A stretch of 64,000 nucleotides of DNA from Rubricoccus marinus (GTDB taxonomy: Bacteria > Bacteroidota > Rhodothermia > Rhodothermales > Rubricoccaceae): positions 1 to 64,000 of the forward strand of contig NZ_MQWB01000011.1 in assembly GCF_002257665.1 (NCBI RefSeq). The letters are read 5' to 3'. Shown in pieces: positions 30,101 through 59,593 of this stretch (the stretch's first letter is position 1; every line of letters starts with the position of its first letter). The translations under genes and the position numbers were made by a program. The notes under the pieces were generated by a model. It made no database searches and was not told the DNA's origin. It saw nothing but the letters and a program-made list of their open reading frames with translations.

Positions 30101-30630
30101 CCAGAGGGTGGGCACTCTACGAACTCACACGGGGCGGTCTGCGCCGTTGTACCGCCGCCGGTCGTGTCTGGTGTGAACCCGCTCCCACTTAACCCGCCTC
30201 CATTAAATCCGCTCGAGCGGGTGTCGGCGGGATTGGTGTGGTAGTAGGTCGAAGCGTCTTGAACGTCTACACCCCTATAGGACCCGCTGAGGTACGCTCC
30301 ACCTTTCACCTCTCGCGTGAGGGAGCCGGGGTCGTAGCTCCATCCGAGCCCGACCCACGTCGCGCGGGATTGGGTGGACACGGAGGAGTTGTATTGGAGG
30401 ACAATCGGCACGTCGATTCCTCGACCTGGGACCGTCAGCACCGGGATAGAGAGGTTGAGGTCCCCCTTGGCAGAGACGCCGGCCGCGTCCGGACCGACGG
30501 GGTGCGTCACTTCGGGCTGGCTGCCATACTGGTTGAGCACCGCCTGCGCACTGGGGCTTCCACACGCGAGTAGGGACAAGAGGGTGAGCGCGGCGGTGCG
30601 GCCGAAGGTGCGAGGCAGCGGGAGCGTCAT
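24103..30630 (-). CDS. RHS/YD-repeat polymorphic toxin with variable C-terminal domain
   Basis: 2175 aa. The N-terminus is a signal peptide with a possible lipobox (LSLLACGSPSAQA). It is followed by a SpvB/RHS-type opening (GDLNLSIPVLTVPGRGIDVPIVLQYNSSVS), many YD repeats (for example YDALGRAVS, YDRLGTLLT, YDATGRLTG) and the conserved RHS core end (NLHYAGARYYSAALGRFTSTDP, NNPVSVIDPAG) near residue 1935. The last about 240 residues are the variable effector and are much more AT-rich, with a basic C-terminal part (WVRNKYFYNQNGNQIGRVDFGQRADP, then FRGMHNSIPESALKDL). I cannot name the toxin activity. The preceding hydrophobic helix (EEVTLDLILLAGAMRSAYTLG) is a typical pre-toxin segment. The immunity gene follows directly. 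Confidence 0.9.
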   Translation of the reverse strand: MTLPLPRTFGRTAALTLLSLLACGSPSAQAVLNQYGSQPEVTHPVGPDAAGVSAKGDLNLSIPVLTVPGRGIDVPIVLQYNSSVSTQSRATWVGLGWSYDPGSLTREVKGGAYLSGSYRGVDVQDASTYYHTNPADTRSSGFNGGGLSGSGFTPDTTGGGTTAQTAPCEFVECPPSGGGDPPPSGPPPPLQPRPDGPGLTIGYPLWAPDTYHLSLPGGGGGTVVQANGRNTQGNFLTPCPIDKGKCLPAVDPLNFFTLERHPWRIHAYGAASVTAGSGSPSESGGTTLGGSYSTSRIPYGSTGTTKPDFYRFVVTTEDGTRHVYEAPTLSSFNGLESTPTGAVPMSQYHVDSWRLIASLGPTYTQPIPERGVVPYSGSGQYASGAVWPADDDPGAWVRYEYSDVASKHVIRYVNAEGGAQVTWDELRQRRVLSKIVTPTHTATFTAGVDYTQDPFGTPTLTSITLTSRLGGAAQTVQTVHLESDGKMGPRSGGMRRLDRVRTEGHTASATTNAGTYVFSYHNGSVMTDGSGAIYNPPIGSGPIDQFGYYREGIPNSYSSTGLPPWTWALSQVQYPTGASETFEYESDRITNAVSFGYGEQVRNSVNGTYTFSGASRVYSLSGAAAYNQGGSRLLSRTASDGLGTSHIRTYTYGAGNLSGIPSLYWRTATQVSAQLYPGDFGEAAVYYETVTVTHADGSKSTTSYTSPTSGHDGLVRPQYAVQTYDNLYRAILSSPEAWSWGLPYHTDEAKGDGKPLRSSHTYLQYVINRGLDTSTSHSFAPVDVFPALLASDGSEIKPRIRANWVEVRSASTSSKEYDDRGGYSTTTTLSVNTYDDVTGLVRSAYSQINGGGGQTLSHKQETVWAWELYRKGGAYARMLDRNLLTTPALQTMKGSGMDASAAVTTFSQFRPSSEDTEMTLADASSPCSAQTAIECVYLPHRAFAYRGADSDITGGAGTTDDDFGAWLRDQTPTADWIRTSTTDAYNVDGSPTRTTDATGLVVDLFYGSSGTGSAPTNSLQFSNATSAHKRSRLTGVRTTADGVTLQRAIDYDSRNGLVSRLWDANNRKTSFAYDGIGRLTTATNDANQTVAAYAYSLLTGSTPNRVITTSYGTPTRKSYAYFDGWGRQVQAQSQESGTTYLVTGTEYDLHSRPVVAYPAARVASNGAYQTTPNLQAAVRTAYASGAGSTPWTRTTFEDAPSGRPIRIDNPSGTGTAATSITLRYALAGLADTSPDTPAVGTAPPPGFASSPAPGGLDDAMMAQGDEPLDPDGGTDTSNLEDGPGAIPRYRRVTTIDETGLYSQVYVDGADQPFLQRSPRALNDPAPLMETRTTYDGAGRVLTTTTPEGRVSAYQYNRLGQLTRSVTPDLDGDGTGGPTNETLAGTPDVEVVYDDAGRPRFTVDPVRRGTSKLLYTTYDAFGRVKAEGVASSTGSVLTDPTKINSSTWPGTAGTERTEYEYDTATPSKSTGGLAVTNPLGRLVQVAFNSASASAPNDGYYQYSYDNFGNVTGYNAYLEGLGIKRATYAYDRLGTLLTTAYQHGVTADRQYFGATYDALGRAVSSWGNETTSSPTSGVPYPIASATFDAAGRATQTVTLGTVTNTLTYDVRSRLTGITATRGGATVFSESVGYALNSRITDATFFQPLLPTGQPLAHKYAYTYDATGRLTGADYFSGTSPGSLQNTTTHDLQGVSYDRDGNIKTLQRQRSGLENYTYNYTAGSGRLNTVTGSGPAGGIFFYDRNGAMTGAEVGQDIASYSMGRNGLPFQVTNDVGTTRYLYDGVGQRVYASASGGRYTVRGAHGEDLAEYTGAGALVSHSLGGGRREASGARVAYVTDHLGSVRLAVDTVGQTRAVTDYYPFGLQMPGRVYVQGTPTREDFTGHELDQETNLHYAGARYYSAALGRFTSTDPHAASYPGWSPYHYAANNPVSVIDPAGTDWVCATDDEGECTSYEWRDGVGSQEDLGGSWEETGYSYIGTSGTYTTFGGISVSLITVYGVNGDHVAGDWHYTGSGTKMLAVAPLSERYAGQSGAVEEVTLDLILLAGAMRSAYTLGTAATRGIYARMTASNTSNSTLIQTTFVGRATPSPTGYVPNSTYIRTVGDEANWVRNKYFYNQNGNQIGRVDFGQRADPAAFHRFPAGEPFRGMHNSIPESALKDLRIFDLPPGLARRPSRF

Positions 30631-30846: not shown

Positions 30847-31533
30847 ATGCCGCGTCCCCTCCGCCTGGACATCGTCACCGATGACACGACGCAGGACTGG
30901 TCGTCGCGTTGGCATCCAGATGCAGTGGCGCGGGTGTCGTCGTTCCCGGAAACGCTGGCTGCGTCTGGAGCGTGGGCGGTGCGCTTGCCGACGGACCTCG
31001 CCCTCATCGAGTGGGACGTACTCCGCGCGCCGCTTTTCGGTGCGGTGTGTCATGCCTACCGTGAGTCGGGGGTGCCCGCCGTTGCTATGTGCGCGGACCG
31101 GGACGACGCTCTGGCTGCGATCGTCGCGGGAGCCGACCGCGCGCTCCTGGCGCCGTATCCGTGGCGAGAGGTCCAGGCAGGACTGATCGCCTACCGTCGG
31201 CTCACGGAGGCCCGCGAGGGTCCGAAAGACCACGGGATCCTGACGGTTGGCCGGCTGGCTATCGACACCCGGCGGGCGCGGGCGACCGTGGATGGTACCG
31301 TGGTGACGCTAACACCGCGGCTCTTTGACCTCCTCACGTTTCTCGCCCGTCGGGAGGGCGAGGTGGTGGGGCGAGAAGCGCTGCTTTCTGGCGTTTGGGG
31401 GCTGGATTTTGACCCTCAGACGAACGCTGTAGACGTGTACGTGCATTACTTACGGCGTGCGCTTCGGACGGTGGGGTTGAGCGAGGCGGTCGTAACAGTC
31501 CGAGGGCGTGGGTACCTGTTCGAGACGCTCTAG
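30847..31533 (+). CDS. OmpR/PhoB-type winged-helix regulator with degenerate receiver
   Basis: 228 aa. Residues about 130-228 are a clear Trans_reg_C winged helix (GRLAIDTRRARATVDGTVVTLTPRLFDLLTFLARREGEVVGREALLSGVWG; VDVYVHYLRRAL; TVRGRGYLFETL). Residues 1-120 have receiver-like alternation but lack a convincing phospho-acceptor Asp in the central strand and the conserved Lys. It is therefore probably phosphorylation-independent. It is divergent from the RHS toxin across 216 bp, which suggests control of the toxin, though no sensor kinase is nearby. Confidence 0.82.
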   Translation: MPRPLRLDIVTDDTTQDWSSRWHPDAVARVSSFPETLAASGAWAVRLPTDLALIEWDVLRAPLFGAVCHAYRESGVPAVAMCADRDDALAAIVAGADRALLAPYPWREVQAGLIAYRRLTEAREGPKDHGILTVGRLAIDTRRARATVDGTVVTLTPRLFDLLTFLARREGEVVGREALLSGVWGLDFDPQTNAVDVYVHYLRRALRTVGLSEAVVTVRGRGYLFETL

Positions 31534-31677
31534 CGAGGGGTGTCGCACACCTTGGCAACTCCTCGGGAGAGTCACCGTCGAACTTGGGTAGGGTGTGCGG
31601 CCGTTGACGGTGTGGAGCTCGTCGACTCCGGCCTTCTCCGCCGCGCGGACGTGGAGGCCATCGTAGACGGCGCCGCT

Positions 31678-31797
31678 CAGCAGGTCGAGGGCCGTCAGCA
31701 GGTCAAGGGCCGTCAGCAGGTCGAGGGCCGTCAGCAGGTCGAGGGCCGTCAGCAGGTCGAGGGCCGTCAGCAGGTCGAGGGCCGTCAGCAGGTCGAG
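31678..31797. repeat. 18-bp tandem repeat, six full copies
   Basis: The unit CAGCAGGTCGAGGGCCGT is repeated six times plus 12 bp (one copy has A for G). On the minus strand it encodes LLTALD-type hexapeptides in frame within the decayed vapC. The intact copy at about 10168 has a single unit, so this is a local slippage expansion. Confidence 0.95.
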
Positions 31798-31983
31798 CAC
31801 GGCGCGGTAGTCGTCGGCGCCCAGCGGGACGACCTCGGCGAACTGGAGCGCCCCCTCCTCAATCAGGCGGAGGACGGCCGTCGGCGTGAGGCGGGGCCTC
31901 AGGGCCGTGAGCGTCGCGTAGGTCTCGGCGAGCGCGTGCGCGGCGACGACGAGATCGATCTCGCCAGAGGCGGCGCGGTCAAG

Positions 31984-32232
31984 GGGCACCTTCGGGATAC
32001 GTGTCGGATGTCACGTTAGCGGGCCTGTCCCGAAAGGGTGCTGCCGAGAGCCAACGCAAAACGGCCTCTGCGTGCTCTCAGGGTTGGTCGGTTGCCGTCC
32101 CGGAAGGTGAACCTTTCCGGACAGTCGGGGCCAGGGTGATTAGCTCGTCGCTCCGAGATCAGCCTCCCCGCCTAGCGTTGGTCGATTCCAAAGCGCTATG
32201 ATGACATTTTGCACGTATCCCGAGGTACCCCC
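31984..32232. mobile_element. MITE-like 249-bp element with terminal inverted repeats
   Basis: It begins GGGCACCTTCGGGATACGT and ends with the near-complement ACGTATCCCGAGGTACCCCC. Weaker complementarity extends inward to about 40 bp (ATGTCA and TAGCG blocks). It is flanked by GTCAAG at 31978-31983 and 32233-32238, a probable 6-bp target duplication. The uninterrupted vapC sequence at 10.4 kb shows the empty site. It has no coding capacity; an internal hairpin (CCCGGAAGG/CCTTTCCGG) lies near 32100-32120. The mobilising transposase is not in the window. Confidence 0.78.
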
Positions 32233-32826: not shown

Positions 32827-33885
32827 ATGAACGAGCCGACCCTTCCCGTCCCAGCCCTCTCGCCCGTCGAGGTCGCGAGCCCCCGGCCCGGTCCCAACCC
32901 GGCGACGGTCTACCTCGCGCGCTTGGCGCCCGGGTCCCGTCGGACCATGCGCGGCGCGCTCGCGACGGTCGCCGCGATCTGCGTGCCCGACGCTGCCCCG
33001 CCTCCGGCGCCAGAGGCGTTCCCGTGGGGGTCGTTCCGCGCCGAGCACGCCAAGGCCGTCCGCGCCGCGCTGGCGGAGCGGTTCAAGTACACGACGGTGA
33101 ACAAGACGCTCTCCGCGCTACGAGGCGTGCTCCGCGAGGCGTGGGAGCTCGGGCTCATGGAGACCGAGCACTACCACCGGGCAGCGGCGGTCCGCGCGGT
33201 CAAAGGATCGTCGGCTTCGGCGGCCACAGGCCGGTCGCTCGCCCGAGGCGAGCTGCGCGCGCTCATCGAGGCGTGTCTTACACCGGTATCGCCTCGGAAG
33301 GGTGATGCTCCGATCGTGACCGAGAAAGGACAACGCGACGCGGCGCTCGTGGCGCTCGGCTACGGGTGCGGTCTGCGACGGGACGAGCTGGCGACGCTCA
33401 TGGTGGGCAACCTCGACTTGGTGCAGCGGCGCGTCGTCGTGCGCGGAAAGGGCAACAAGGAGCGAGTCGTGCCAATCCCGCCGGGGGCGTTCCACGCGCT
33501 CCGGGACTACCTCACCGTCCGCGTTGAGGGGCTCGTCGGCGCCAGAGGCGAGCCCTCTCTTCTCTCACCTATATATAGCGACACCCCGCTCTTCGTCCGG
33601 GCGCGCCGTGGCGGCCGGCTCGACCGCACGGCCGCGTCGCTCACGGGGCAGGCGGTCTACCACGTGCTCAAGACGCGGGCGGAGGAGGCGGGTGTGGATT
33701 CATTCAGCCCGCATGACTTGCGGCGGAGCTACGTCGGCGACCTCTTAGACGAGGGCGCGGACCTGTCCGTCGCACAGCAGTTGGCCGGCCACGCGAGCCC
33801 GACGACGACGGCGGGGTACGACCGGCGGGGGGAGCGGGCAAAGGAGCAAGCGGCCTCACGGCTGGATGTGCCGTACGACGGATGA
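32827..33885 (+). CDS. int: Tyrosine recombinase (phage-type integrase)
   Basis: 352 aa. A SAM-like N-terminal core-binding domain (residues about 20-125, including YTTVNKTLSALRGVLREAWELG) is followed by the catalytic domain. Catalytic residues: Arg in CGLRRDELATL, Lys in the KGNKERVVPIP hairpin, HDLRRSYVGDLLDEG (His-x-x-Arg), AGHASPTTT (His) and the nucleophile Tyr in GYDRRGE. XerC-like length and order. It should catalyse integration/excision of the accessory island to its right. It lies directly next to the decayed vapBC, so that locus may mark the island boundary. No tRNA target is visible. Confidence 0.93.
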   Translation: MNEPTLPVPALSPVEVASPRPGPNPATVYLARLAPGSRRTMRGALATVAAICVPDAAPPPAPEAFPWGSFRAEHAKAVRAALAERFKYTTVNKTLSALRGVLREAWELGLMETEHYHRAAAVRAVKGSSASAATGRSLARGELRALIEACLTPVSPRKGDAPIVTEKGQRDAALVALGYGCGLRRDELATLMVGNLDLVQRRVVVRGKGNKERVVPIPPGAFHALRDYLTVRVEGLVGARGEPSLLSPIYSDTPLFVRARRGGRLDRTAASLTGQAVYHVLKTRAEEAGVDSFSPHDLRRSYVGDLLDEGADLSVAQQLAGHASPTTTAGYDRRGERAKEQAASRLDVPYDG

Positions 33886-34524: not shown

Positions 34525-35598
34525 ATGCGCCTCATGACGCGACGCCTGCTGGCCGTCGGTGACGGCCTCTCGATGTACGCCTCTTGCGGGTGGGCGGGGC
34601 TCCACGTTGATTGCGGGTCCCAGTCGGGCGGCGCGTTCGCCGCCAGCCGGTGGGTGAACGGGTGCTCTGCGGAGGAACGATGGCGTACGGACGCGTTTCT
34701 CATTACGCACTACCACACCGACCACTACAACGGGTGGGTGTACGCGTCCGACGCGGGGAGCGTCCCTCCCCTCCCGTACCTCTCCACGCTGTACCACCCG
34801 CGGCTCCCGACGCCGGGAGCTGTCGACTTGCTCCGAGCGACGTTCGCCCTCTTCGCGCTGGGCTCCGGCACGGGAAGCATGGAGATCGACCTCTGGCACC
34901 GGGTGGCACGTCTGAGCCGGCGGCCTGTCGTGCGAGTACCCCTTGAGCAGGGACGGAGGGTACAGACGTCTGCCGGGGAACTCCATGTGATCTGGCCTCC
35001 CCACCATATCCAGGGGGCGCTCAGCGAGACCATCGAGGGCGCCGTTCGGAAGTTCCATGATGCCCTCGATCGGCACACCCGCCTCCGAGAGCTCTACGAG
35101 GCGACGGAGTCCGTGGAGGCCTACGCCGATGGTGACAAAGCTCCCGTACGAAACCGGGACCGAATCGACCCGTGGGAGCGAGAGGGACGGCCGAGGCGGC
35201 AGCATGAGCCGTTGGACCCAGACCACTACGAGAGCCTTGACGACATGCTCCCCGATGAGGAGCTGCGCGAGGTCAACCGCGCTCTCCGGGACGCCGCGAA
35301 CTCCCTGGGGCTCGCGTTCGTGCTGGACCGCCGCGTACTTTGCCTGGGCGACCTCGAGGGGCGAGCGCTGACGGGGGCCCTCTCGTACCTCGTCGGTGAG
35401 GGCCTGATCGACTTCGACGTCATCGTCGCGCCCCACCACGGGACAAAGTGGAACCGGGAGATGTTCAAGTTGAGGGGCAACCGGGTTGAGGTTTCAGTAG
35501 GCGACCGCCTGTGGCCCAAGGTGAAGCCCGAGCTCGGCCGGATCGCACGATCCGTCCACTTCACCCACATGCAGGGCGACCTCGTCTGGCATGGCTGA
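34525..35598 (+). CDS. Metallo-beta-lactamase-fold hydrolase 1
   Basis: 357 aa from the ATG at 34525 (an ATG at 34534 is also possible). The MBL core: FLITHYHTDHYNGW (HxHxDH), CLGDLEG (metal-bridging Asp) and VAPHHGTKWNREMF (distal His). The closest general relatives are ComEC-like/RNase-type MBL proteins acting on nucleic acids or nucleotides. An insertion between the motifs (RKFHDALDRHTRLRELYEATESVEAY) is family-specific. The protein ends LVWHG. It converges on the E2-E1-JAB gene with a 7-bp gap. The C-terminal Gly is of interest because the neighbour is a ubiquitin-like conjugation enzyme. Confidence 0.82.
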   Translation: MRLMTRRLLAVGDGLSMYASCGWAGLHVDCGSQSGGAFAASRWVNGCSAEERWRTDAFLITHYHTDHYNGWVYASDAGSVPPLPYLSTLYHPRLPTPGAVDLLRATFALFALGSGTGSMEIDLWHRVARLSRRPVVRVPLEQGRRVQTSAGELHVIWPPHHIQGALSETIEGAVRKFHDALDRHTRLRELYEATESVEAYADGDKAPVRNRDRIDPWEREGRPRRQHEPLDPDHYESLDDMLPDEELREVNRALRDAANSLGLAFVLDRRVLCLGDLEGRALTGALSYLVGEGLIDFDVIVAPHHGTKWNREMFKLRGNRVEVSVGDRLWPKVKPELGRIARSVHFTHMQGDLVWHG

Positions 35599-35605
35599 TG
35601 CGTAT

Positions 35606-37888
35606 TCAAGGGGCGGGTATCCCACGGAATTCGCCCTTGGAAAACACGTGGGGATGTAGCTCGGGGGCCGTGTGGGGGGACCCCACGATGAGCATCGTAA
35701 ACACACGGGGCAGCCGTTCGGGGCGCGAGAACACGTCGGCGAGGCTAGCGAGATCGCGCCCGCTGGGTTCCGGGGGATGTCTGGGGTGCGTGTGCCACGT
35801 TCCTATAAACCCTACCGCCCCATGCGAGGCGGTGGCGAGCCGTTCGGTCTCGGCGGCCAGCCCTTCTACTCCGCACGTAAATCGATCCACGGCCTCGATG
35901 CTGTCGAGGGGAGGGGGGCCAGCGCGGTCGATCCAGACGACCCTGCGGACGGAATCCCAGTCGCCAAAAAGTGCCCCCCCCGTTTCTACATCGGGTCCGA
36001 GGCGCTCCCGAGCGTCCGCGATCGCGCGCGAAAGCTGACTGGTCACGCCTTCTCCAAGGTGAACTGTAAATCCGAGCCTGGGGTCTTTGAGATGACAGTA
36101 GGGCCGAGCGCCGAACTGGACGGAGGCGAGCCGATCAGTGTCTTCGAGTGCGAGGTACGGCTGGCAGGCGAGGAGGGCCGCACTCGTTCCCTGTGACTGG
36201 ACGAGACGCCGAGCACTCCAATTGAGTGCCATCGCGGACAGGGCATTCATGTCGGCTGCAGAACCGACGAAGGTACTCTCTGAACAGCCGGGCTCGGGGT
36301 AGAAGGGGTCCGTAGAGTCCCGTGGGCGGGACGGAAAGAAGCCGTCCAGGTATTCGCGGCCTCCCTCACGCTCGGCGAGTTGGAGCCGGACGTCACGCTC
36401 GAGGTCGCCGAGGCTCCCCGGGTCACTTCCTGTGAGTAGACGGGCGAACACGCGTTCGGCTCTAGCGTCGACCCCAACGGTCAGGATCGGGACCGCCGGC
36501 GTACTACGGCGGAGGTCGAGGAACGCTCGGACGGGGATTGCAGCGGTCGCATCGATGACGATCTCGGCGCCGTCGCTCCAGTCAGTGCCCGGTGGAATCC
36601 GAGTGACATCGTTGATGTCCGCCTCGACCCTGAGGTCAGGGCGGATCCCTCGGATCCGATGGCGGAGTGCGTCCACCTTGGCGAGACCGACGTCGTCAGC
36701 TTCGTAGGGTTGGCGGGCGAGGAGTCCTGGTGAGACGACGCCTTTGTCTCGGAGGACGAGCCGTGCGGCCCCGGCTCTCGCAATGGCGATAGCAATGGGA
36801 CCACCGACTGCGCCACACCCCCAGATCGCGACCTCCCGACCCTCGAACCATGACATAGGGGCGCCCTGATCGCGGCGCACGGCGACAGTAGGTCGGGCCT
36901 CGTGCGATCGACAGACGAGCAGCGGCAGCCCATCGCCCTCGGTAAGGACCCGGTCGATGGCCTCCTCTTTTCGACGCGTCCCACCAGCTTCCCATAGAGC
37001 CTCTGAAAGGGGCCGAGGAAGGAACAGCGTTGTCAAGAAGTGACGTGAGTCGTCTATCCCCATCGAGGTCCCGATGGTGAAGTAAAGGGGGTGGCCCCGG
37101 ACTCCGGCGCGCGCGACGCGGCCGAGGTGCTTTACGACTGTTCGGGGCTCGAGTCCAGTGGACTCGAGGGAGCGGAGAAGGGACCCGAGGGTGTCCGGGA
37201 ATTCGAATCCGAGCCGACCACCGACGAGGACCGCAGCCCCAAAGCGCTGACCGCGGATGTGTCTCGCCGTAGACGTGTCCCACCCCTTGATGACCACGCG
37301 GTCGGGCGTGCTCGCCCGTGCATGGTCGATCGCTTTGGGAGGTGCAACCGTCAGGCGCGTGTATCCCATCCACGGCCGTGTGGCGTCGGGCTCAGACGCC
37401 TCGGCGACGACCGCGGCGGGGACGGGCAGCACCCGAGAAAGGGTAGGCGCGTGGAACGCCCCCCCCTGTTGTTCGACGTCGTTCCGGGCTACCCGGTCGA
37501 ACCACGTCCAGAGCCGTTCGAGGACGTAGCCCGACAGGCCCATTTTCGGGTCCCAGTCAGTCGACGGGGATCTGAAGAGGCAGAGACCGTCGCCTCGGAG
37601 GACGTTCTCGTAACCGGCGAACCGTGTGTGAGCGACGGACGCACGGGGATACCCCACGGGGAACGTCGGCGGAAGCGTAATGCTGACGTGCTCGGTCGGT
37701 TCGAAGAGGAGACCACCAGGAGTGTGCGCGGCAATAAACGTCCGGGCGTCGAGGTCGACGTCAATCGTCAGGCTTCCGGCGTCATAGCGGATGCCCACGA
37801 TAGAGAAGCCCCCCCCGGAGGCGGCCTCGATCTCGCGGGCCTCTGCTAGTGCCGTGGCAAGCGCGAGGGGTAGGTCGGCGGGTGACAT
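35606..37888 (-). CDS. E2-E1-JAB fusion protein (ubiquitin-like conjugation/deconjugation)
   Basis: 760 aa from the ATG at 37888, 7 bp after the MBL2 stop. Residues about 1-170 form a bacterial E2/UBC fold (VSITLPPTFPVGYPRA; GDGLCLFRSPSTDW with candidate catalytic Cys103). Residues about 380-610 form an E1/ThiF adenylation domain (EVAIWGCGAVGGPIAIAIAR; RDKGVVSPGLLARQPYEADDVGLAKVDAL). Residues about 640-760 form a JAB/MPN peptidase: Glu in VETGGALFGD and an intact HxHx7SxxD (HTHPRHPPEPSGRD). One chain can thus activate, transfer and remove a C-terminal-glycine substrate, combining the jobs of Cap2 and Cap3 in type II CBASS or the Bil enzymes. No ubiquitin-like or CD-NTase gene is adjacent. Confidence 0.9.
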   Translation of the reverse strand: MSPADLPLALATALAEAREIEAASGGGFSIVGIRYDAGSLTIDVDLDARTFIAAHTPGGLLFEPTEHVSITLPPTFPVGYPRASVAHTRFAGYENVLRGDGLCLFRSPSTDWDPKMGLSGYVLERLWTWFDRVARNDVEQQGGAFHAPTLSRVLPVPAAVVAEASEPDATRPWMGYTRLTVAPPKAIDHARASTPDRVVIKGWDTSTARHIRGQRFGAAVLVGGRLGFEFPDTLGSLLRSLESTGLEPRTVVKHLGRVARAGVRGHPLYFTIGTSMGIDDSRHFLTTLFLPRPLSEALWEAGGTRRKEEAIDRVLTEGDGLPLLVCRSHEARPTVAVRRDQGAPMSWFEGREVAIWGCGAVGGPIAIAIARAGAARLVLRDKGVVSPGLLARQPYEADDVGLAKVDALRHRIRGIRPDLRVEADINDVTRIPPGTDWSDGAEIVIDATAAIPVRAFLDLRRSTPAVPILTVGVDARAERVFARLLTGSDPGSLGDLERDVRLQLAEREGGREYLDGFFPSRPRDSTDPFYPEPGCSESTFVGSAADMNALSAMALNWSARRLVQSQGTSAALLACQPYLALEDTDRLASVQFGARPYCHLKDPRLGFTVHLGEGVTSQLSRAIADARERLGPDVETGGALFGDWDSVRRVVWIDRAGPPPLDSIEAVDRFTCGVEGLAAETERLATASHGAVGFIGTWHTHPRHPPEPSGRDLASLADVFSRPERLPRVFTMLIVGSPHTAPELHPHVFSKGEFRGIPAP

Positions 37889-37895
37889 GAAAGGC

Positions 37896-39062
37896 TCAGC
37901 CGTGATCGATGGCGCTGGAGGAAGGTGTGGCGCCCCCGACAACGGGGCCGGCGCCCCAGCCGGGAGGCGTGGCGTTGGCCACGGTCGCGCCGTTGACAGT
38001 AATGGCGATGACGAGCGGCTTGGGCTGGCCCGGCGTGGGGTGCTCCATGGTCACGACGTAGTTCCTCCGGTTGCCGTGACCCTCGGCAACATCCTTGTAG
38101 TACGCCGCGGCCTCGGGATGCGGTGGATCGTTGTCCTTATAGCGGCGAACAGGGCGGCTCGGAGAGATCAGGATTGACTGGGGCTCACCATAGTCCTCGA
38201 ACAGGCGGGCTACGTTGGGCAGCGGGGTTGTTTTGCGCGAGCCACGCTCGGAGGGATGGAGCGAGAGGTAGGACGAGTGGTGTGGGAGGTGGAAGACATC
38301 CCAGCGCAGTCGATCGAAGCGCGACGGGTCGGGATGATCGGGGTTCTTCGCGTGCCACTCGGTGATGGCGACGATCTGGTCGATTTCGTTGGCCCGGAGG
38401 TCGGCGAGGAAGAGAGCGCGCGTGAGGCGGCCGTTCACGTCGAAGACGGCCTGGAAGCCGAGGCAGTCACCGTTGCGGTTGGGCTTGAGGCCCTGCTCGG
38501 AGCGCGTGGCGAACGGTGAGTGCGCGAACATCTCGAAGCGGTCCCGCTCTAGTGTGAACTCCGGGACGAGTTCTCCGGCGTCGGTGAAGAGATGGGCGCG
38601 CGTGGCTGGGTCGATGCCGCGGTCGCGGAGCCAGTCGGTGAGGAGTCCGGGCGTTGAAAAGACCCGGATCCCGTACCCCTTCACGAGGCGGTGCCGTGCC
38701 TCGTCCCGGATCAACCGGGAGTCCCCGGTGTTGCCGGTCTCAAGGATGGCGACGGCCGGGACCATAAGGGTCCCGATTTTGGCTCGCCCCTCGCCTTGGT
38801 ACTTTTCGTAGCGGTCGAACCAGAAGAAGTCGCTAGCCCCGCAGATGTGATCATTGTCGAAGTGAGTGAAGGCGACGGCCTCGTAGCCGTCCTTCTTGTT
38901 GCGGCTGAGGTGGGCGCGGAGTTCAGCCGGGAGGTCTACGCGCTTGTCAGAGGGGTCGTCGGTGGCGACGGCCGCGAAGTCGACGAGGATGGAGCGACCA
39001 TCGTCGAGGTCGATCCGCGAGCAATCGGCGTTGTCGAGCGGGAAGCAGGTGATCGTGGGCAT
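37896..39062 (-). CDS. Metallo-beta-lactamase-fold hydrolase 2
   Basis: 388 aa. The motif AVAFTHFDNDHICGASDFF is an HFDNDH variant of the HxHxDH signature, as seen in ComEC-like conflict-associated MBL proteins. DLRANEIDQIV and VFHLPHHSSYLS give the later metal ligands. The C-terminus, after a Gly/Pro-rich linker (PPGWGAGPVVGG), is SSSAIDHG. It is the first gene of a two-gene operon with the E2-E1-JAB fusion. MBL partners of fused E1/E2/JAB proteins are known from comparative genomics of mobile elements. The substrate is unknown; a nuclease or phosphodiesterase is likely. Confidence 0.82.
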   Translation of the reverse strand: MPTITCFPLDNADCSRIDLDDGRSILVDFAAVATDDPSDKRVDLPAELRAHLSRNKKDGYEAVAFTHFDNDHICGASDFFWFDRYEKYQGEGRAKIGTLMVPAVAILETGNTGDSRLIRDEARHRLVKGYGIRVFSTPGLLTDWLRDRGIDPATRAHLFTDAGELVPEFTLERDRFEMFAHSPFATRSEQGLKPNRNGDCLGFQAVFDVNGRLTRALFLADLRANEIDQIVAITEWHAKNPDHPDPSRFDRLRWDVFHLPHHSSYLSLHPSERGSRKTTPLPNVARLFEDYGEPQSILISPSRPVRRYKDNDPPHPEAAAYYKDVAEGHGNRRNYVVTMEHPTPGQPKPLVIAITVNGATVANATPPGWGAGPVVGGATPSSSAIDHG

Positions 39063-39166
39063 GGGGGGCGTATGTAAACTTGGAGGTCAGAAGTAGAGGG
39101 AGCAGAGGCTCCCTAGAACATCCTGCTGGGGTCGCCCCCCGATTCGTCACACCCCTTCGACTTTTT

Positions 39167-39769
39167 TTGCCGCCCCCCTCCCCTACTCCCCTCGACGACG
39201 CGGACTGGCCCTCGATCTATAGTCGACTGGAAGCGTACGCGACCTGGAAGGCGGCCCGGCTCCGCATTTCGGGGACCGGTCTGCTCCCGCTTGGACGCCG
39301 ACCGGAGGACGTCGTGCAACAAGCGATTGCCCAAACGATCGAGGGGTCGCGGGCGTGGGACCCGGAGACATACCCCGACCTCGTGGATCACCTGCGGGCC
39401 GCCGTCGACAGCATCACGTCGAATCTCATCCAGCGGGCGGAGCACAGACACCGGGTACCAGAGACTGTTGAGGACCGGATCGGCGGCGTGGTCGTCGCCG
39501 AGGCCGACCCCGAGACGGCCTTGGCCGACGGGGAGTGCGCGGACGCACTGGAGGCGATCTGTGCGGAGGTGGTCGGGGACGACGATCGGTACGAGGCGGT
39601 CCGGATGGGGATCGAGGACGGCGAGAGCCGGTCGGTCGTGGCCGAGATGATCGGGACGACGGTGAAGGAGGTGTATGCGATGACCAAGACGTTCGTCCGG
39701 CGGATGCGGAAGGCGCTTGCGGCGCACCCGTGCTGGTCCGACGTTGGGACACCCAACCGCTCCCGCTGA
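39167..39769 (+). CDS. Sigma-70-like RNA polymerase sigma factor
   Basis: About 200 aa. Residues 30-100 resemble region 2 (RRPEDVVQQAIAQTIEGSRAWDPETYPDLVDHLRAAVDSITSN). Residues about 145-190 resemble region 4 HTH (YEAVRMGIEDGESRSVVAEMIGTTVKEVYAMTKTFVRRM). The start is uncertain: TTG 39167 gives a native-looking N-terminus and leaves room for a divergent promoter, while TTG 39080 is further upstream in frame. It is the first gene of a three-gene operon with overlapping stops and starts, ending in an ImmA/IrrE protease. It may direct transcription of island genes. Confidence 0.75.
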   Translation: MPPPSPTPLDDADWPSIYSRLEAYATWKAARLRISGTGLLPLGRRPEDVVQQAIAQTIEGSRAWDPETYPDLVDHLRAAVDSITSNLIQRAEHRHRVPETVEDRIGGVVVAEADPETALADGECADALEAICAEVVGDDDRYEAVRMGIEDGESRSVVAEMIGTTVKEVYAMTKTFVRRMRKALAAHPCWSDVGTPNRSR

Positions 39770-40197
39770 TGGCTCCGTCCGACGACCCGCATCTCCGCCT
39801 CCTAGACGGCCTCGCCGAGGCTGCGCTCCGCGACGACGCACTCGCGGACGAAACCCACCGCGGGGATGGGCGTGACCCCGAGGCCGTCCGTGCTGCGGGC
39901 GCGGCATTCATAGCTCCCCTGCTTGGTCGCGCCCGGCTCCGGTCGGCGGCCATGGCGAGAGAGGCGACGGCCTCGCGCCTGACCGGAATGAAAGAAGTCG
40001 CGGCGGCGAAGCTCCGCGAAGCCCGCGCACGGGGGGTCGACCTGGTGTCGGCGCTGGCGGACCTTCTGGGCACGCCGGAGGGCGAGCTACAGGTCCACTT
40101 TCGGAACGTGGATCACCTCGACGAGGCCGACGTGGCCGACATGCTCACCGAGGCCGAGCTTCTCCGTCTGCTAGACGAGGGCGAGGCGGACGAGTGA
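39769..40197 (+). CDS. Small helical protein between sigma factor and ImmA
   Basis: 142 aa. The ATG overlaps the sigma stop (TGATG), and its end overlaps the ImmA GTG by 4 nt. It is mostly helical (KEVAAAKLREARARGVDLVSALADLLGTPEGELQVHF) with an acidic C-terminus (ADMLTEAELLRLLDEGEADE). By position it resembles a regulatory partner, such as an anti-sigma or antitoxin/repressor subunit that ImmA would degrade. I do not recognise a named domain; a degenerate HTH around GVDLVSALADLLGTPEGEL is possible. Confidence 0.65.
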   Translation: MAPSDDPHLRLLDGLAEAALRDDALADETHRGDGRDPEAVRAAGAAFIAPLLGRARLRSAAMAREATASRLTGMKEVAAAKLREARARGVDLVSALADLLGTPEGELQVHFRNVDHLDEADVADMLTEAELLRLLDEGEADE

Positions 40198-40979
40198 CGG
40201 CGCGCCCTCGACTCGATCTCGCCTCCGCTCGGGCTGAGTCCCACGCCCGTCAGATGTTAAAGGCGTACGGAATCACGCGGGCGGCCGACATCGACCTCCG
40301 TGACCTCGCGTTCGACAGGAAGCTCGTGCTCCGGGCGGCCCCCATCCGGGGGTCCGAGGGCCGGCTCATCCGGCGGAACGAGTGGTCGATCGCGACAGTG
40401 GACTCGGCGATCCGCCACGACGGAAAGCGCCGGTTCGTCGCGGCGCACGAGCTCGGGCACCACGAGCTCCACCGAGACGCGCCCGTGTTTGTCTGCGACG
40501 GGAGGGACTTCCTCGACTGGCACCGTCGCCGCCCTCAGGAGACGGAGGCGAATCGGTTCGCCGCTGAGCTCCTGATGCCGAAGGCCGCCTTCTGCGCCGA
40601 CGCGCACGGAGCGCGGTCGCTGGCGTCGGTCGGGGAGGTGGCCGATGCGTACCGGGCGTCTCTGACAGCGGCGGCGTTCCGGTTCGTCCACCTCGACGTC
40701 GCCCCGAGCGCGCTCGTGTTCTGCGTCGGCGGCCGAGTGGAATGGTCGTTGATCAGCCCGTCGTTCTCGTGCCGGTACGTCGAGCGGGGTCGGGCGGTCC
40801 ACCCCTATTCGGGGGCGGGGGAGGCGTTTTCGAGCGGAGCCACGAGTCGCGGGCCGGAGCCGACGCCTGTGACCGCGTGGTTCTCAGACGATGACCTCGA
40901 CCCGTCGGCGGACGTGTACGAGGACTGCCTCGCGATGCCGTCTCTCGACGCCACCCTGAGCCTGATTCTCGACCCGTAG
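40194..40979 (+). CDS. ImmA/IrrE-family zinc metallo-endopeptidase
   Basis: 261 aa. The gluzincin-like motif FVAAHELGHHELHRD (HExxH) is followed about 35 residues later by ETEANRFAAELLMP (third ligand Glu), the standard ImmA/IrrE layout. These proteases cleave phage/ICE repressors or anti-sigma-like proteins after DNA damage or other cues. In an operon with a sigma factor and a small protein, the likely role is proteolytic release of the sigma factor or a repressor. The C-terminal 90 residues are specific to this subfamily. Confidence 0.87.
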   Translation: MTARPRLDLASARAESHARQMLKAYGITRAADIDLRDLAFDRKLVLRAAPIRGSEGRLIRRNEWSIATVDSAIRHDGKRRFVAAHELGHHELHRDAPVFVCDGRDFLDWHRRRPQETEANRFAAELLMPKAAFCADAHGARSLASVGEVADAYRASLTAAAFRFVHLDVAPSALVFCVGGRVEWSLISPSFSCRYVERGRAVHPYSGAGEAFSSGATSRGPEPTPVTAWFSDDDLDPSADVYEDCLAMPSLDATLSLILDP

Positions 40980-41003: not shown

Positions 41004-42461
41004 CTACTCGATCTCGACTTGGACCCAGAGGCCGTCGGGGTCCGTCGAGACCCGGCCGAGGAACGACTGCCAGGTGCGTTGAGAGACGCCAGCGGGTCGG
41101 TCGGGGACCTTGGTGTCGGCGCGGAGGACGCGGCCGCTGCACCGCTCCTGGAGCCGGGCGTCGAGCGGCGCGAAGGGCATGGCCCACTTTTTCTTGCGTG
41201 CCTGGGCCTCGTTGACGGGGACGAGCGCGGTGAGGTCGGGATGGCTCATGAGCTCGAGGCCGAGGTCGCGGAGGGTCGCGTTGTGGCTGGCGTGGTGGCC
41301 GACTTTGTAGAGGACGGTCTGGCCGAGGAGGGTCTCGGCTGTGACCAGCTGGCCGTCGTCGTCCCACGAGAGCTCGTGCCACGAGAGCCAGTTGCCGACC
41401 TGGGCGTCGCCAGGGAAGAGGAGGACGCGGCCGTCGGCGAGCTCGAAGGCGAGGGCGAGGCTCGTGTTGTTGACGTCGCCGTCGAGTTGGAGCGCGAGGG
41501 CCTCCGCGGTCCCCAGCCAGTCCTCGTCGATCCGCCGCCAGGCGAGTTCGGGGGGGGGCTCGTCGCCGCCGTAGTGGTCGAGGACGAAGTCGGCGAGGTC
41601 GCCCGTAGACGCGTCGCCGAGCGGAACCCCGGTGTCCGGGCCGAACGGAGCCGAAGGGTCGTCGTCGGCGAGGGCGTCGGCAAGCCCGTCGCGGGTCCGG
41701 GCGGTCTCGGCTGCCGCGTGCTCGTAGACCTCGCCGCTGTGCCGGCGCGGGTCGGAGCGCCGGAGAAGGGCCTCATTCCGAGGAGGCCCGAGAACGAACG
41801 CGCGGACGCCCGGAGCGACGGGGACCGGAGCCTCACCCGGAGAGAGGTACCGGGCGTGATCGCCAAGCGAGAGCGCGAGGTCCATTTGCTTGGCCGTCCC
41901 GCGGCTCCGCTTGGCTGCGAACCGGTCCGGCACGGCGGCGAGCGTCCGGAGCGCCGCTTTCGAGGCACCAACACCGAGGAAGCCGAGGACCCCGCCGATC
42001 TCGTCCGCGCGAGCGCGGAGGTGGGGGTCGCGAGCCTCCCGGAGGCGGCTGGCCGCGAGCTGGAGCGTGCCGAAGTCGGCGTCGAGCTCTCGCTGGAGGC
42101 GGACGGCGTCGGGATCGGCGGGGTCCTCGGTCCAGGCGGCCCAGACCTCGTCGATCTGGAGGTCGTTCTCGAACGTCTCCCGCGCCCATTGGAAGCCCGA
42201 GAGGTGGTCCCAGTGCTCGTGCGAGAGGACGAGGACGTCGATTCGCCCTCCGGTCACCGCGACAACGTCGGCGGCGACGTTCCGCATCTGCTTCGAGCCC
42301 CCGCGGGTCCCGTTGAACACGCCGCAATCGACGAGGACGTAACGAGCGGGCCGGTCGTCGCCACCGGGACCAGGGAACGCGAGGAGGAAGCAGTCGCCTA
42401 GTCCGCCGGGGTCGTACATCCGGACGACGGCGCCACCGGGGGGTGCGCTGAGGGTGCTCAT
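41004..42461 (-). CDS. Metallo-beta-lactamase-fold hydrolase 3 (ComEC-like)
   Basis: 485 aa. The N-terminal RMYDPGGLGDCFLLAF and VLVDCGVFNGT are the usual first strands. LVLSHEHWDHLSGF is the HxHxDH site, LLFPGDAQVGNW provides the bridging Asp and YKVGHHASHNATL the distal His. A large insertion (about residues 100-310) separates the motifs. It is larger than the two other MBL proteins of the island and not closely similar to them. Its ATG overlaps the stop of the preceding metalloprotease gene (ATGA), so the two are one operon. Confidence 0.83.
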   Translation of the reverse strand: MSTLSAPPGGAVVRMYDPGGLGDCFLLAFPGPGGDDRPARYVLVDCGVFNGTRGGSKQMRNVAADVVAVTGGRIDVLVLSHEHWDHLSGFQWARETFENDLQIDEVWAAWTEDPADPDAVRLQRELDADFGTLQLAASRLREARDPHLRARADEIGGVLGFLGVGASKAALRTLAAVPDRFAAKRSRGTAKQMDLALSLGDHARYLSPGEAPVPVAPGVRAFVLGPPRNEALLRRSDPRRHSGEVYEHAAAETARTRDGLADALADDDPSAPFGPDTGVPLGDASTGDLADFVLDHYGGDEPPPELAWRRIDEDWLGTAEALALQLDGDVNNTSLALAFELADGRVLLFPGDAQVGNWLSWHELSWDDDGQLVTAETLLGQTVLYKVGHHASHNATLRDLGLELMSHPDLTALVPVNEAQARKKKWAMPFAPLDARLQERCSGRVLRADTKVPDRPAGVSQRTWQSFLGRVSTDPDGLWVQVEIE

Positions 42462-44407
42462 GGGGACGGGGCGGCGCGGTGGAGGAGGGCGAAGGGTTCG
42501 GGGGCAGGATCGGCAGCGGATCGCGCCCCGAAATAGACCCCCTGGAGAGCTGGATTGAACCGGTCACGGAGGTAGCGGCGCTGCCGGTCGAGGCGGGCGT
42601 CGTCATCGATCCGCTTCCCGATGAGGTACCGGGGACGTCCGGTCGCGAGGTCGATGAGGAGGGTGGCGCCGGCACGGAAAACAAAGTCGGCTTGCTCCTC
42701 CACGTCCTTCATGGTTCCCGCGTCGGCCGCCGCCTGGCGGTCCGAGTCGAAGAACCCGAACCGGCGCTGGGTGGCCACGGCGACGAGGTCGGTGTGGATT
42801 TCGCCGGAAGGGGCGACACGCCGGGCGGGTCGGACGGCGTGGATCTCCAGGGCTGGGCTATTGGGGTGCGTCCTTGACCAGTAGGAGGACCTCGAGATCG
42901 ACCCCGGCGCGTCGGGACGGAGGGTCAGACCGAGCGCCTCCGCGGCGTCGTAGTGCGGGCCGCTCATGAGCGCTTTGTTGACCTCCTCGCAGGCTTCGTT
43001 TGCGGCGTCGCTGACGGCCTCGCGGTCCGTTCGGAGGCCCCAGTCGGGGACGAACCGCTCCCGGATGGCCTCCGCGTCGCCGAGCGCGCGCCGGATGGCG
43101 TCGGCCTCCTCGCCGCGCGGAGCTCGCCAGAGGAGTGCCTCCTCGGAGAGGCTCCGGACACCGTCGGGATAGATCCCCCAAGCCCGGAACGACTCGACGA
43201 GGGCGACGCGGTAGCCGTGCGCGTCGTCCGGGACGAGGTCCCGATCGGCAGTGATGAGCGCGCGGAGGTACTCGCCGAAGGTGACGTCGACGGGCGGGCA
43301 GTAGTCGAGCGCCCGAATACACATCCGCAGGAGGTGCGAGGCGGCCTTGGCAGCCTGGTCCGCGAGCGCGTCGACGAGGTCGTGCGGGAGCGCCCCCTCC
43401 GGGAGGATGCCAGATCCCCCGGTGGCTATGCGGACGAGGCGCGCCGTCCGCTCGCGGTAGATCGCGACGAAGGCGCCGAAGACCGCAGCGACGAGGACGG
43501 ACCCGCGGTCGTGGGGCTCCAGGGCGCGTTCGAGGGCGTGGGGGTCTGGCCGGCGGGGCCGCCAGCGGCCGTCGTCGCTGGGGCCGCCGAGCGCGTCGCG
43601 GAGCGCGCCGTGCCCCCCGGCCGCTCGGCCGAACTCCTGGGCGAGCTGAGCGAGGAGCGACTCAGCGCCGAGATCGCCACGGGTCCGCGCGATCTGGTGG
43701 CGGAGCGCTTCCGGGAACGAGAAGTGCTGGAATAGAGCGACGAGGTCGGCGAAGGCCTCGTGGAAGGCGAGGACGTCGGGGTTGGACGGCTCGGCGAACC
43801 GCCGGTGCATCCCGTCGAGGAGGGCGTGGGTCGTCTCGTGCGCGACGACGTCGTGGGAGAGGCAGGTGAAGACGAGGCCTCCCGGGAGCGCGCCGTCGCG
43901 GCGGGCCGGGGCGGCCGGGAAGTACCCGAAGAGGAGGGCCTTCTTCGCCGGGCTGTAGTAGGCGTTGGCCTCGCGTAGAGCGTGGGGGTAGACGCGGAGG
44001 CGCTGGACGAACTCGACGTACTTGGTCCGTCCGTCGGCGCCGACGTAGCGACCGGCGGCCCAGAGGGCGCGCCGCCCGAGGGCCTCCTCGAACCGCTCGA
44101 TCGTCGTCATCGCGACGGCGTAGATCATCTGCTGGTGGAACTGGGGGGTTCCGAGCGATGGGGCGAGGCCGTCCTGGGCGAGGAGGTGGGGGTCGTTGAG
44201 GTCGACAGGTCGGTAGAGCCGGTTCGACGCCGGGTCGACGTCGACGACTTCGAGGTACTCGCCGACAGGGCCTGGAGAGAGGTCGGTCTCCCAGCGGACG
44301 GGGATCGTGACCTCGTTGATGGCGGCCGTGTCGAGGCGAGTGGACCGACCAGGGTCGAACGCGAAGGCCCGAAGACGGCGGCGAGGGGGGGCGGGGTAGT
44401 TGGACAT
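42458..44407 (-). CDS. Large protein with thermolysin-like zinc-metalloprotease motif
   Basis: 649 aa from the ATG at 44407. The motif VVAHETTHALLDGMHRRFAEPSNPDVLAFHEAFADLVALF is a gluzincin site: HETTH, with the third-ligand Glu in HEAFAD, as in M4/M36-like peptidases. There is no signal peptide, so it would act in the cytoplasm. The C-terminal third (VRPARRVAPSGEIHTDLVAVATQRRFGFF) is unfamiliar. It is co-transcribed with MBL3. A cytoplasmic protease paired with a possible nucleotide/nucleic-acid hydrolase suggests a defence or stress function, which is inference. Confidence 0.75.
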   Translation of the reverse strand: MSNYPAPPRRRLRAFAFDPGRSTRLDTAAINEVTIPVRWETDLSPGPVGEYLEVVDVDPASNRLYRPVDLNDPHLLAQDGLAPSLGTPQFHQQMIYAVAMTTIERFEEALGRRALWAAGRYVGADGRTKYVEFVQRLRVYPHALREANAYYSPAKKALLFGYFPAAPARRDGALPGGLVFTCLSHDVVAHETTHALLDGMHRRFAEPSNPDVLAFHEAFADLVALFQHFSFPEALRHQIARTRGDLGAESLLAQLAQEFGRAAGGHGALRDALGGPSDDGRWRPRRPDPHALERALEPHDRGSVLVAAVFGAFVAIYRERTARLVRIATGGSGILPEGALPHDLVDALADQAAKAASHLLRMCIRALDYCPPVDVTFGEYLRALITADRDLVPDDAHGYRVALVESFRAWGIYPDGVRSLSEEALLWRAPRGEEADAIRRALGDAEAIRERFVPDWGLRTDREAVSDAANEACEEVNKALMSGPHYDAAEALGLTLRPDAPGSISRSSYWSRTHPNSPALEIHAVRPARRVAPSGEIHTDLVAVATQRRFGFFDSDRQAAADAGTMKDVEEQADFVFRAGATLLIDLATGRPRYLIGKRIDDDARLDRQRRYLRDRFNPALQGVYFGARSAADPAPEPFALLHRAAPSP

Positions 44408-44560
44408 GATCGTCGGTGGCGACAGCGAGGATTCTACGATCCAGACGCGTACCGATCTACCTGTCCCCATGCACCGATCACACGTTTAATCATGTATCGT
44501 CTTCGCAGTTGCAGGTTTGAACGCGCACCCGTTCCTTGGATCTCCGTTTCACAGAAGCCG

Positions 44561-45733
44561 ATGGAGACGCTCCCAGACCCCGCCGACCCGATCCACGACT
44601 ACGATCCCGAGCCCGACGCTGAAGCGCTCGCTGGAGCCGCGAGCGACGTAGCCCTCTGCTTGTCCGGCGGTGGCTACCGCGCGATGCTGTTCCACGTCGG
44701 CTCGCTGTGGCGGCTCAACGAGGCTGGGATGCTCCGAACGCTCGCGCGCGTGTCGAGCGTGTCGGGCGGCTCGATCACGGCCGGCGTGCTGGCGCTCGCA
44801 TGGGACGACCTGGGGTGGGCCGGTGGAGTCGCGACACAGTTCGAGACTCGCGTAGCGGACCCCGTTCGGGTGCTGGCAAGCCGGACGCTCGACGCGGGCG
44901 CGGTGCTCACGGGTGTGCTCCTGCCGGGGTCCGTTGGCGACAAGGTTGCGGCGGCGTACGCGCGGTACCTGTTCGGGGACGCGACGCTCCAGGACCTTCC
45001 GGACGACTCGGCCGGGGACGCGCCCCGTTTCGTCATCAACGCCACGAACCTCCAAAGCGGGAAGCTGTGGAGGTTCTCGCGGCCGTACATGGGCGACTGG
45101 CGGGTGGGTATCGTCCGCGAACCGTCGGTGCCGCTCGCCCGGGCGGTCGCCGCGTCGTCGGCGTTCCCGCCAGTGCTCTCCCCAGTTGTGCTCGACCTCG
45201 ACTCGTCCGACTTCGACGCGAGCACGGGGGACGGCTTGACCGGGCGCGCATACAGGGAAGAGGTCGTCCTAAGCGACGGGGGCGTGTATGACAACCTCGG
45301 ACTGGAGACCGCCTGGAAGCGTCACGGGACGGTCCTGGTCTCCGACGGTGGCGGGGCGTTCGAGCCCGACCCGGACCCGCCGAGCGATTGGGCGCGCCAT
45401 TCGGTCCGCGTGCTGGGCGTGATCGACAGTCAGGTCCGGAACCTCCGGAAGCGCCAGACGATCGGCGCGTTCGCCTCGGGCCGGAAGAGGGGGGCGTACT
45501 GGGGAATCCGGACGGACATCGCGAGGTACGGGCTCGGGGACGCCCTCCCCTGCCCTGCCCCGGAGACAGTGCGGCTGGCCGAGACGCCGACTCGCTTGAA
45601 GCGACTGTCGGACGTGCGTCAGGAGCGGCTGATCAACTGGGGGTACGCCGTGTGCGACGCGGCCCTCCGCGCGCACGTGGACCCATCGCTTCCAGCGGGC
45701 GCCTTCCCCTATCCTGACGCTAAGGTCGGATAG
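44561..45733 (+). CDS. Patatin-like phospholipase
   Basis: 390 aa from the ATG at 44561 (an ATG at 44492 adds 23 residues). The oxyanion loop is LCLSGGGYRAMLFHVG, the nucleophile elbow is SSVSGGSITAGV (GxSxG-like), and the dyad Asp is in LSDGGVYDNLG. Patatins release fatty acids from membrane lipids and are common cell-killing effectors in CBASS and related systems. It is divergent from the metalloprotease across about 150 bp. The next ORF is in the same reading frame, separated by the single TAG at 45731. It ends in Gly (AKVG). Confidence 0.88.
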   Translation: METLPDPADPIHDYDPEPDAEALAGAASDVALCLSGGGYRAMLFHVGSLWRLNEAGMLRTLARVSSVSGGSITAGVLALAWDDLGWAGGVATQFETRVADPVRVLASRTLDAGAVLTGVLLPGSVGDKVAAAYARYLFGDATLQDLPDDSAGDAPRFVINATNLQSGKLWRFSRPYMGDWRVGIVREPSVPLARAVAASSAFPPVLSPVVLDLDSSDFDASTGDGLTGRAYREEVVLSDGGVYDNLGLETAWKRHGTVLVSDGGGAFEPDPDPPSDWARHSVRVLGVIDSQVRNLRKRQTIGAFASGRKRGAYWGIRTDIARYGLGDALPCPAPETVRLAETPTRLKRLSDVRQERLINWGYAVCDAALRAHVDPSLPAGAFPYPDAKVG

Positions 45734-59555: not shown

Positions 59556-59593
59556 TGCTCTGTATTTGTACAAGTCTCGCTTTTCCGCGAGTG

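What the first reader, a model, noticed from the sequence alone, without database searches (positions are those of the whole stretch)
34525..39062. E2-E1-JAB fusion sandwiched by two MBL-fold proteins that both end in His-Gly
Seen: a single 760-aa protein carries E2 (candidate Cys103), ThiF/E1 (GCGAVGG) and a complete JAMM site (HxHx7SxxD). It is in an operon with MBL2 and converges 7 bp from MBL1. Both MBL proteins end in -HG although their sequences are unrelated near the C-terminus. Known: in type II CBASS and Bil systems, E1/E2 enzymes activate the C-terminal Gly of a partner and a JAB protease trims or removes it; MBL neighbours of fused E1/E2/JAB proteins have been noted in comparative genomics. 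Inferred: here the MBL enzymes themselves could be the conjugated substrates, giving a compact defence system without a dedicated ubiquitin-like protein or CD-NTase. A terminal Gly in two proteins could still be chance.
Basis: partly seen in the sequence, partly recalled or inferred. Interest (0 to 1): 0.82.

Follow-up and report, generated by a model that had tools for sequence, protein, structure and literature searches.

The report
Hybrid 6A-MBL ubiquitin-like conjugation operon
This is a divergent, recombined copy of a known bacterial anti-virus operon in which a ubiquitin-style enzyme most likely attaches its partner enzyme to other molecules through a glycine at the partner's very end; comparing about 100 related operons suggests that the enzyme, not the partner's body, dictates what that end looks like.

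Summary
The genes are as described. MBL2 plus E2-E1-JAB form a 6a operon (Iyer 2006; NCBIfam 'anti-phage 6A-MBL'). MBL2 passes the family cut-off (313 vs 220 bits); the E2-E1-JAB falls below its own (268 vs 320), so it is a divergent member.

The inference that MBL2 is the conjugated substrate gains strong comparative support. In 63 dereplicated MBLs from related operons, 62 carry a Gly within the last five residues, against 32% of other ORFs. MBL2's last ~23 residues are predicted disordered and end in Gly388. Three enzyme classes go with three endings: A '-RAG', B '-[FYH]G' plus 0-6 residues, C mostly '-QG'. Of 100 MBL/enzyme pairs, 98 match in class. The window and one Acidobacteria locus pair an A-class MBL body with a B-class enzyme, and both have B-like endings (-DHG, -GFG). 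The ending therefore seems to follow the enzyme.

The inference about MBL1 is not supported: no relatives found, absent from all 99 other loci, no flexible tail visible. Its '-HG' is probably chance.

Additions: a patatin phospholipase is the usual third component, fused to E2-E1-JAB in 19 loci but not adjacent here. A sigma-like/142-aa/CapP controller trio is divergent from the operon. Conjugation and phage defence remain untested.

The parts
37896..39062 (-). MBL2: 6A-MBL enzyme (388 aa), ComEC-like MBL fold (HxDxDH motif at 67-72), class A body; probable conjugation substrate
   Evidence: NF058524 313.5 bits, cut-off 220; 45-49% identity to class A MBLs; class A in tree 100/100; Foldseek best hit ComEC beta-lactamase-like domain 9ic4, E 6.7e-13
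37896..37967 (-). C-terminal tail of MBL2, about residues 366-388 (disordered), ending Asp-His-Gly388; predicted E1/E2 attachment site
   Evidence: pLDDT < 50 for 366-388; Gly within last 5 residues in 62/63 dereplicated homologs
35606..37888 (-). E2-E1-JAB fusion (760 aa), class B: E2 Cys103, ThiF/E1 GCGAVGG, Cys535, JAMM E635/HxHx7SxxD
   Evidence: Pfam ThiF and Prok-JAB; NF058523 268 bits, below cut-off 320; Foldseek Cap2 3.8e-20; class B in tree, branch support 100; catalytic residues conserved in 97 relatives
40194..40979 (+). CapP-like ImmA/IrrE metallopeptidase, divergent from the operon; probable DNA-damage-responsive controller
   Evidence: PADLOC capP 3e-53; Peptidase_M78 6e-16; same position in L046, L154, L196, L197
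39080..39769 (+). sigma-70-like protein of the controller trio (true start uncertain; conserved part begins near residue 38)
   Evidence: TIGR02937 0.0011; homologs beside CapP in L046, L196, L197 and an annotated sigma factor in L154
39769..40197 (+). 142-aa protein of unknown function between the sigma-like gene and CapP
   Evidence: homologs in the same position in L046 and L197

Best explanation
The core is MBL2 plus E2-E1-JAB, a divergent 6A-MBL operon that works like type II CBASS with an MBL hydrolase in place of the CD-NTase. Proposed steps: (1) Damage or infection activates CapP, which relieves repression of the operon (inferred from CapH/CapP). (2) The E1 domain adenylates the C-terminal Gly388 of MBL2 and passes MBL2 to Cys535 and/or E2 Cys103 as a thioester (inferred from conserved residues and Cap2). 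(3) MBL2 is joined through its flexible tail to an amine on a target, perhaps a protein lysine; this localises or activates the hydrolase, which is ComEC-like and may cut DNA or another phosphodiester. (4) The JAB domain reverses the bond and, in relatives whose tails run past the Gly, trims the precursor; MBL2 already ends in Gly and needs no trimming. (5) In most relatives a patatin phospholipase is the likely membrane-damaging effector; here none is adjacent, so either MBL2 acts alone or the patatin at about 44.5 kb is borrowed. The locus is a natural hybrid: an A-class MBL body works with a B-class enzyme, and the tail ending is of the kind the enzyme class uses. Shown by comparison: operon membership, the conserved Gly, the tail-enzyme correspondence, the hybrid. 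Inferred: conjugation, target, trigger, defence.
For: Family membership. Tight MBL-enzyme linkage: 100 pairs, MBL directly upstream; all 7 family-level MBLs in 394 genomes are next to an E2-E1-JAB. Conserved Gly: 62/63 with Gly in the last five residues vs 72/225 other ORFs, Fisher p 6e-24; [FYHWA]G near the end in 58/63 vs 0/52 patatins. Tail class follows enzyme class: [FYH]G in the B-class pairs, mostly RAG in A-class; both hybrids carry HG or FG; L079 identity switches from A-like body to B-like tail within one ORF. Opposite placement of the window in the MBL and enzyme trees, each with strong support. The enzyme's nearest tree neighbours include L061, whose MBL ends VGHG. Disordered tail. 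Cap2-CdnD02 is the top structural match, and Cap2 is known to load the C-terminal Gly of its CD-NTase (PMC10097602).
Against: No experiment. The E2-E1-JAB is below the NCBIfam cut-off and on a long branch, so its exact place is unsure. Only two hybrids support the tail-follows-enzyme rule, and the window's tail resembles B only in its last two residues: it lacks the upstream ARGxxxPP of B tails and also looks somewhat like C tails (-SIISQG). A terminal Gly occurs by chance in about 10% of ORFs. Tail conservation shows constraint, not conjugation; the tail could be a non-covalent docking peptide. No patatin adjoins the operon here.
Confidence: 0.72

Rival explanations
1. The MBL tail is a non-covalent docking peptide or is cut by the JAB domain as a switch, without conjugation; E1/E2 use some other, unlinked ubiquitin-like protein.
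For: Most B-class tails run 1-6 residues past the Gly, so a processing-only role of the JAB is possible; peptides docking in E1 would give similar constraint.
Against: E2 Cys103, the E1 site and Cys535 are invariant in 97 relatives, which a docking-only role would not need; the MBL gene abuts the enzyme gene in nearly all pairs and no Ubl-sized gene fits between them; A-class tails usually end exactly in Gly.
Confidence: 0.17
2. Both MBL1 and MBL2 are substrates.
For: Both end in -HG, and MBL1 is convergent 7 bp from the enzyme gene.
Against: No MBL1 relative in plasmids, phages, viral contigs or 394 genomes nor in the 99 other loci; opposite strand; its end (...FTHMQGDLVWHG) follows directly on what looks like the last core strand, without a 20-residue tail.
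Confidence: 0.06
3. The locus is a decaying or non-functional recombinant: mismatched MBL and enzyme, no effector gene.
For: Hybrid pairing in only 2 of 100 loci; long enzyme branch; no adjacent patatin; a true decayed case exists (L149, IS in the MBL tail).
Against: All catalytic residues are intact in both proteins, frames are open, intergenic gaps are operon-like, and the tail has the enzyme-class ending; a second hybrid (L079) has a fused patatin in frame as far as its contig goes.
Confidence: 0.12

Closest known systems
6A-MBL / operon type 6a (Iyer 2006, PMC1779556; NCBIfam NF058523, NF058524)
   Same: E2-E1-JAB in one polypeptide beside a dedicated MBL gene; MBL2 over the family cut-off
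   Different: E2-E1-JAB under the family cut-off; class A MBL with class B enzyme; no adjacent patatin; sigma/142-aa/CapP controller
Type II CBASS (CD-NTase, Cap2, Cap3, effector; PMC10097602)
   Same: Cap2-like E1/E2 and Cap3-like JAB; partner enzyme with a conserved C-terminal Gly on a flexible tail; patatin effectors common in relatives
   Different: Partner is an MBL hydrolase, no CD-NTase; Cap2 and Cap3 functions fused
Bil and Bub operons
   Same: E1, E2 and JAB modules in an immune-type operon; CapP-type regulators in some
   Different: No ubiquitin-fold protein gene; three activities in one chain
ComEC beta-lactamase-like domain (PDB 9ic4)
   Same: Closest solved fold and sequence to MBL2; HxDxDH motif
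   Different: Not membrane-fused; has a disordered Gly-ending tail and a conjugation-enzyme partner

Membership tests
6A-MBL / operon type 6a | E2, E1 and JAB in one polypeptide in that order | tested here: met
   the E2 is weak in Pfam (0.003) but Cys103 is aligned and invariant
6A-MBL / operon type 6a | adjacent metallo-beta-lactamase gene of the family (NF058524) | tested here: met
   313.5 bits against cut-off 220, gap 7 bp
6A-MBL / operon type 6a | E2-E1-JAB over the NF058523 equivalog cut-off | tested here: not met
   268 bits against 320; relative L046 also just fails (318), L036 passes (388). Hence filed as a divergent 6a-type operon, not as the NCBIfam equivalog
6A-MBL / operon type 6a | protection against phage | not testable with these tools
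   no experiment
Type II CBASS | CD-NTase gene in the operon | tested here: not met
   no cyclase hit among nine neighbours
Type II CBASS | Cap2-like E1/E2 conjugating a Gly-ended partner | tested here: inconclusive
   Cap2 fold and Gly-ended partner tail found; conjugation itself not tested
Bil / Bub | linked ubiquitin-fold protein gene | tested here: not met
   none among the neighbours scanned

The most novel reading that the evidence does not exclude
6A enzymes recognise a short C-terminal code in the MBL tail (RAG, [FYH]G or QG by enzyme class) largely apart from the MBL body, so MBL bodies can be exchanged between systems if the tail is matched. The window and L079 are two natural body-and-tail swaps, and MBL hydrolases serve as non-ubiquitin-fold protein modifiers.
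Probability: 0.5. Interest if true: 0.72.

Novelty: new variant of a known kind. Interest (0 to 1): 0.56.

Why it matters
Type II CBASS showed that a bacterial signalling enzyme can take the place of ubiquitin. If MBL hydrolases do the same, protein conjugation by a C-terminal Gly is a more general trick that is independent of the ubiquitin fold. The natural hybrids give ready-made tests of what E1/E2 enzymes read. The recurrent patatin, often fused to E2-E1-JAB, points to the likely effector of a system whose published mechanism I could not find in the open papers searched.

Tried and rejected
MBL1 as part of the system: four searches without a homolog and absence from 99 loci. The patatin at about 44.3-45.7 kb as this operon's own effector: its neighbours MBL3 and the 670-aa protein recur with a patatin in Rhizobium pRLa11 (L140), so it more likely belongs to that module; its best plasmid hits are not at 6A loci in the three I opened, although one 44%-identical patatin does sit in a class A 6A operon (L034). 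Frameshift hiding an RAG or GFG end: I read the other frames by eye and saw none. Orphan MBLs as a negative control: none exist above the family cut-off in 394 genomes. In the all-pairs counts, L062's MBL is frame-broken and the wrong fragment was scored (its true end is RVGFGRRHD); L149 was left out because an IS cuts its tail.

Full report
What is there. The three genes lie as described. The E2-E1-JAB protein has ThiF and Prok-JAB domains and a weak E2 match. The alignment with 97 relatives shows E2 Cys103, the E1 glycines, Cys535 and the JAMM residues conserved throughout. An AlphaFold model (pLDDT 83) matches Cap2 bound to its CD-NTase best among solved structures.

What family it is. MBL2 passes NCBIfam NF058524 '6A-MBL_enzyme' (313.5 bits, cut-off 220); the E2-E1-JAB reaches 268 bits against a cut-off of 320 for NF058523 '6A-MBL_cap2_3'. 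The two-gene arrangement is operon type 6a of Iyer et al. 2006 (PMC1779556). So the kind of system is known and NCBIfam calls it anti-phage, although I found no open paper describing its mechanism. [quoted passage not shown]

The C-terminal glycine is a family trait. I collected related loci from plasmids, genomes and viral contigs, giving 100 MBL/enzyme pairs. After dereplication at 70% identity, 62 of 63 MBLs have a Gly within the last five residues, against 72 of 225 other long ORFs and 25% of patatins in the same loci. Class A MBLs end in -RAG, class B in -[FYH]G followed by 0-6 residues, class C mostly in -QG. In MBL2 the last ~23 residues are predicted to be disordered and end in Gly388. 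This parallels cGAS/CD-NTases of type II CBASS, whose terminal Gly or Ala is conserved only where Cap2 and Cap3 are present and is loaded on Cap2 (PMC10097602).

The window is a hybrid. In the MBL-body tree (tails removed) MBL2 is inside class A with 100/100 support. In the enzyme tree its E2-E1-JAB is inside class B across a branch with support 100 (long end branch, so its place within B is unsure). Of 100 pairs, 98 agree in class; the exceptions are the window and L079, an Acidobacteria MAG contig. L079's MBL is A-like for most of its length and B-like only at its tail...ARGTPAPPAQRVGFGRHD. The window's tail ends DHG; among class B tails, L061, one of the two rows grouped with the window's enzyme, ends VGHG. 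I read this as the tail following the enzyme. The reading rests on two cases, and the window's tail is B-like only at its end.

MBL1 does not belong. It has no detectable relative in any collection searched and no counterpart in the other 99 loci. Its -HG follows directly on what looks like the final strand of the fold.

Usual third component. A patatin phospholipase is adjacent to the enzyme gene or fused to it in most related loci. Pfam confirms E2-ThiF-JAB-Patatin in one chain for L055 and L134. The window has no patatin next to the operon. One lies at about 44.5 kb beside MBL3 and a 670-aa protein, a trio also present in Rhizobium pRLa11, so I do not count it as part of this system.

Controller. 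Divergent from MBL2 are a sigma-70-like gene, a 142-aa gene and CapP (PADLOC 3e-53). The same trio stands beside 6A operons in L046 and L154, beside a CD-NTase plus E2 operon in a genome of the same genus (L196) and beside a Multi_ubiq/E2/JAB-ThiF operon (L197). CapP in CapH+CapP is a DNA-damage-responsive protease (stated in PMC13373217); a similar role here is inferred.

Mechanism. The MBL fold is closest to the ComEC beta-lactamase-like domain by sequence and structure, so a phosphodiesterase or nuclease activity is a reasonable guess. The best model is a CBASS-like conjugation cycle with the MBL as modifier and the JAB as trimming and reversal enzyme; no step has been tested.

Noticed in passing
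window 39080-40979; L046 3450-5229; L154 2503-4267; L196 6576-8465; L197 3555-5349: A sigma-like / 142-aa / CapP gene trio is divergent from five different E1/E2-type immune operons (three 6A-MBL, one CD-NTase plus E2, one Multi_ubiq). It may be a variant of CapH+CapP in which a sigma-like protein replaces CapH.
   Followed up: partly
L055 4808-8308, L134 6980-10522 and 17 further loci: E2-E1-JAB fused to a C-terminal patatin phospholipase, a four-domain protein of about 1150 aa.
   Followed up: partly
window 41004-45733; L140 2127-7131: MBL3, a 670-aa protein with an HETTH zincin-like motif, and a divergent patatin recur together in Rhizobium pRLa11: possibly a separate, undescribed module. 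MBL3 weakly resembles LmuA and Avs1a.
   Followed up: partly
L161 259-1374 (G087:C7): A distant MBL ending ...SEYGR near a contig end, with the downstream gene probably cut off; the tail rule predicts an E2-E1-JAB beyond the break.
   Followed up: no
L149 4495-6311: An IS5 element interrupts the tail of a 6A MBL in a Roseomonas plasmid, a natural loss of the terminal Gly.
   Followed up: no
window 31450-31989 (-): Small ORF with about six tandem copies of the peptide LLTALD, perhaps a slippage-prone repeat.
   Followed up: no
window 24103-30630 (-): A 2175-aa ORF with RHS/YD-repeat-like sequence, near a phage integrase gene at 32827-33885.
   Followed up: no
window 58299-59573 (-) and 62012-63982 (-): A RuBisCO large-chain-like protein and a Strawberry notch-type helicase domain.
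   Followed up: no
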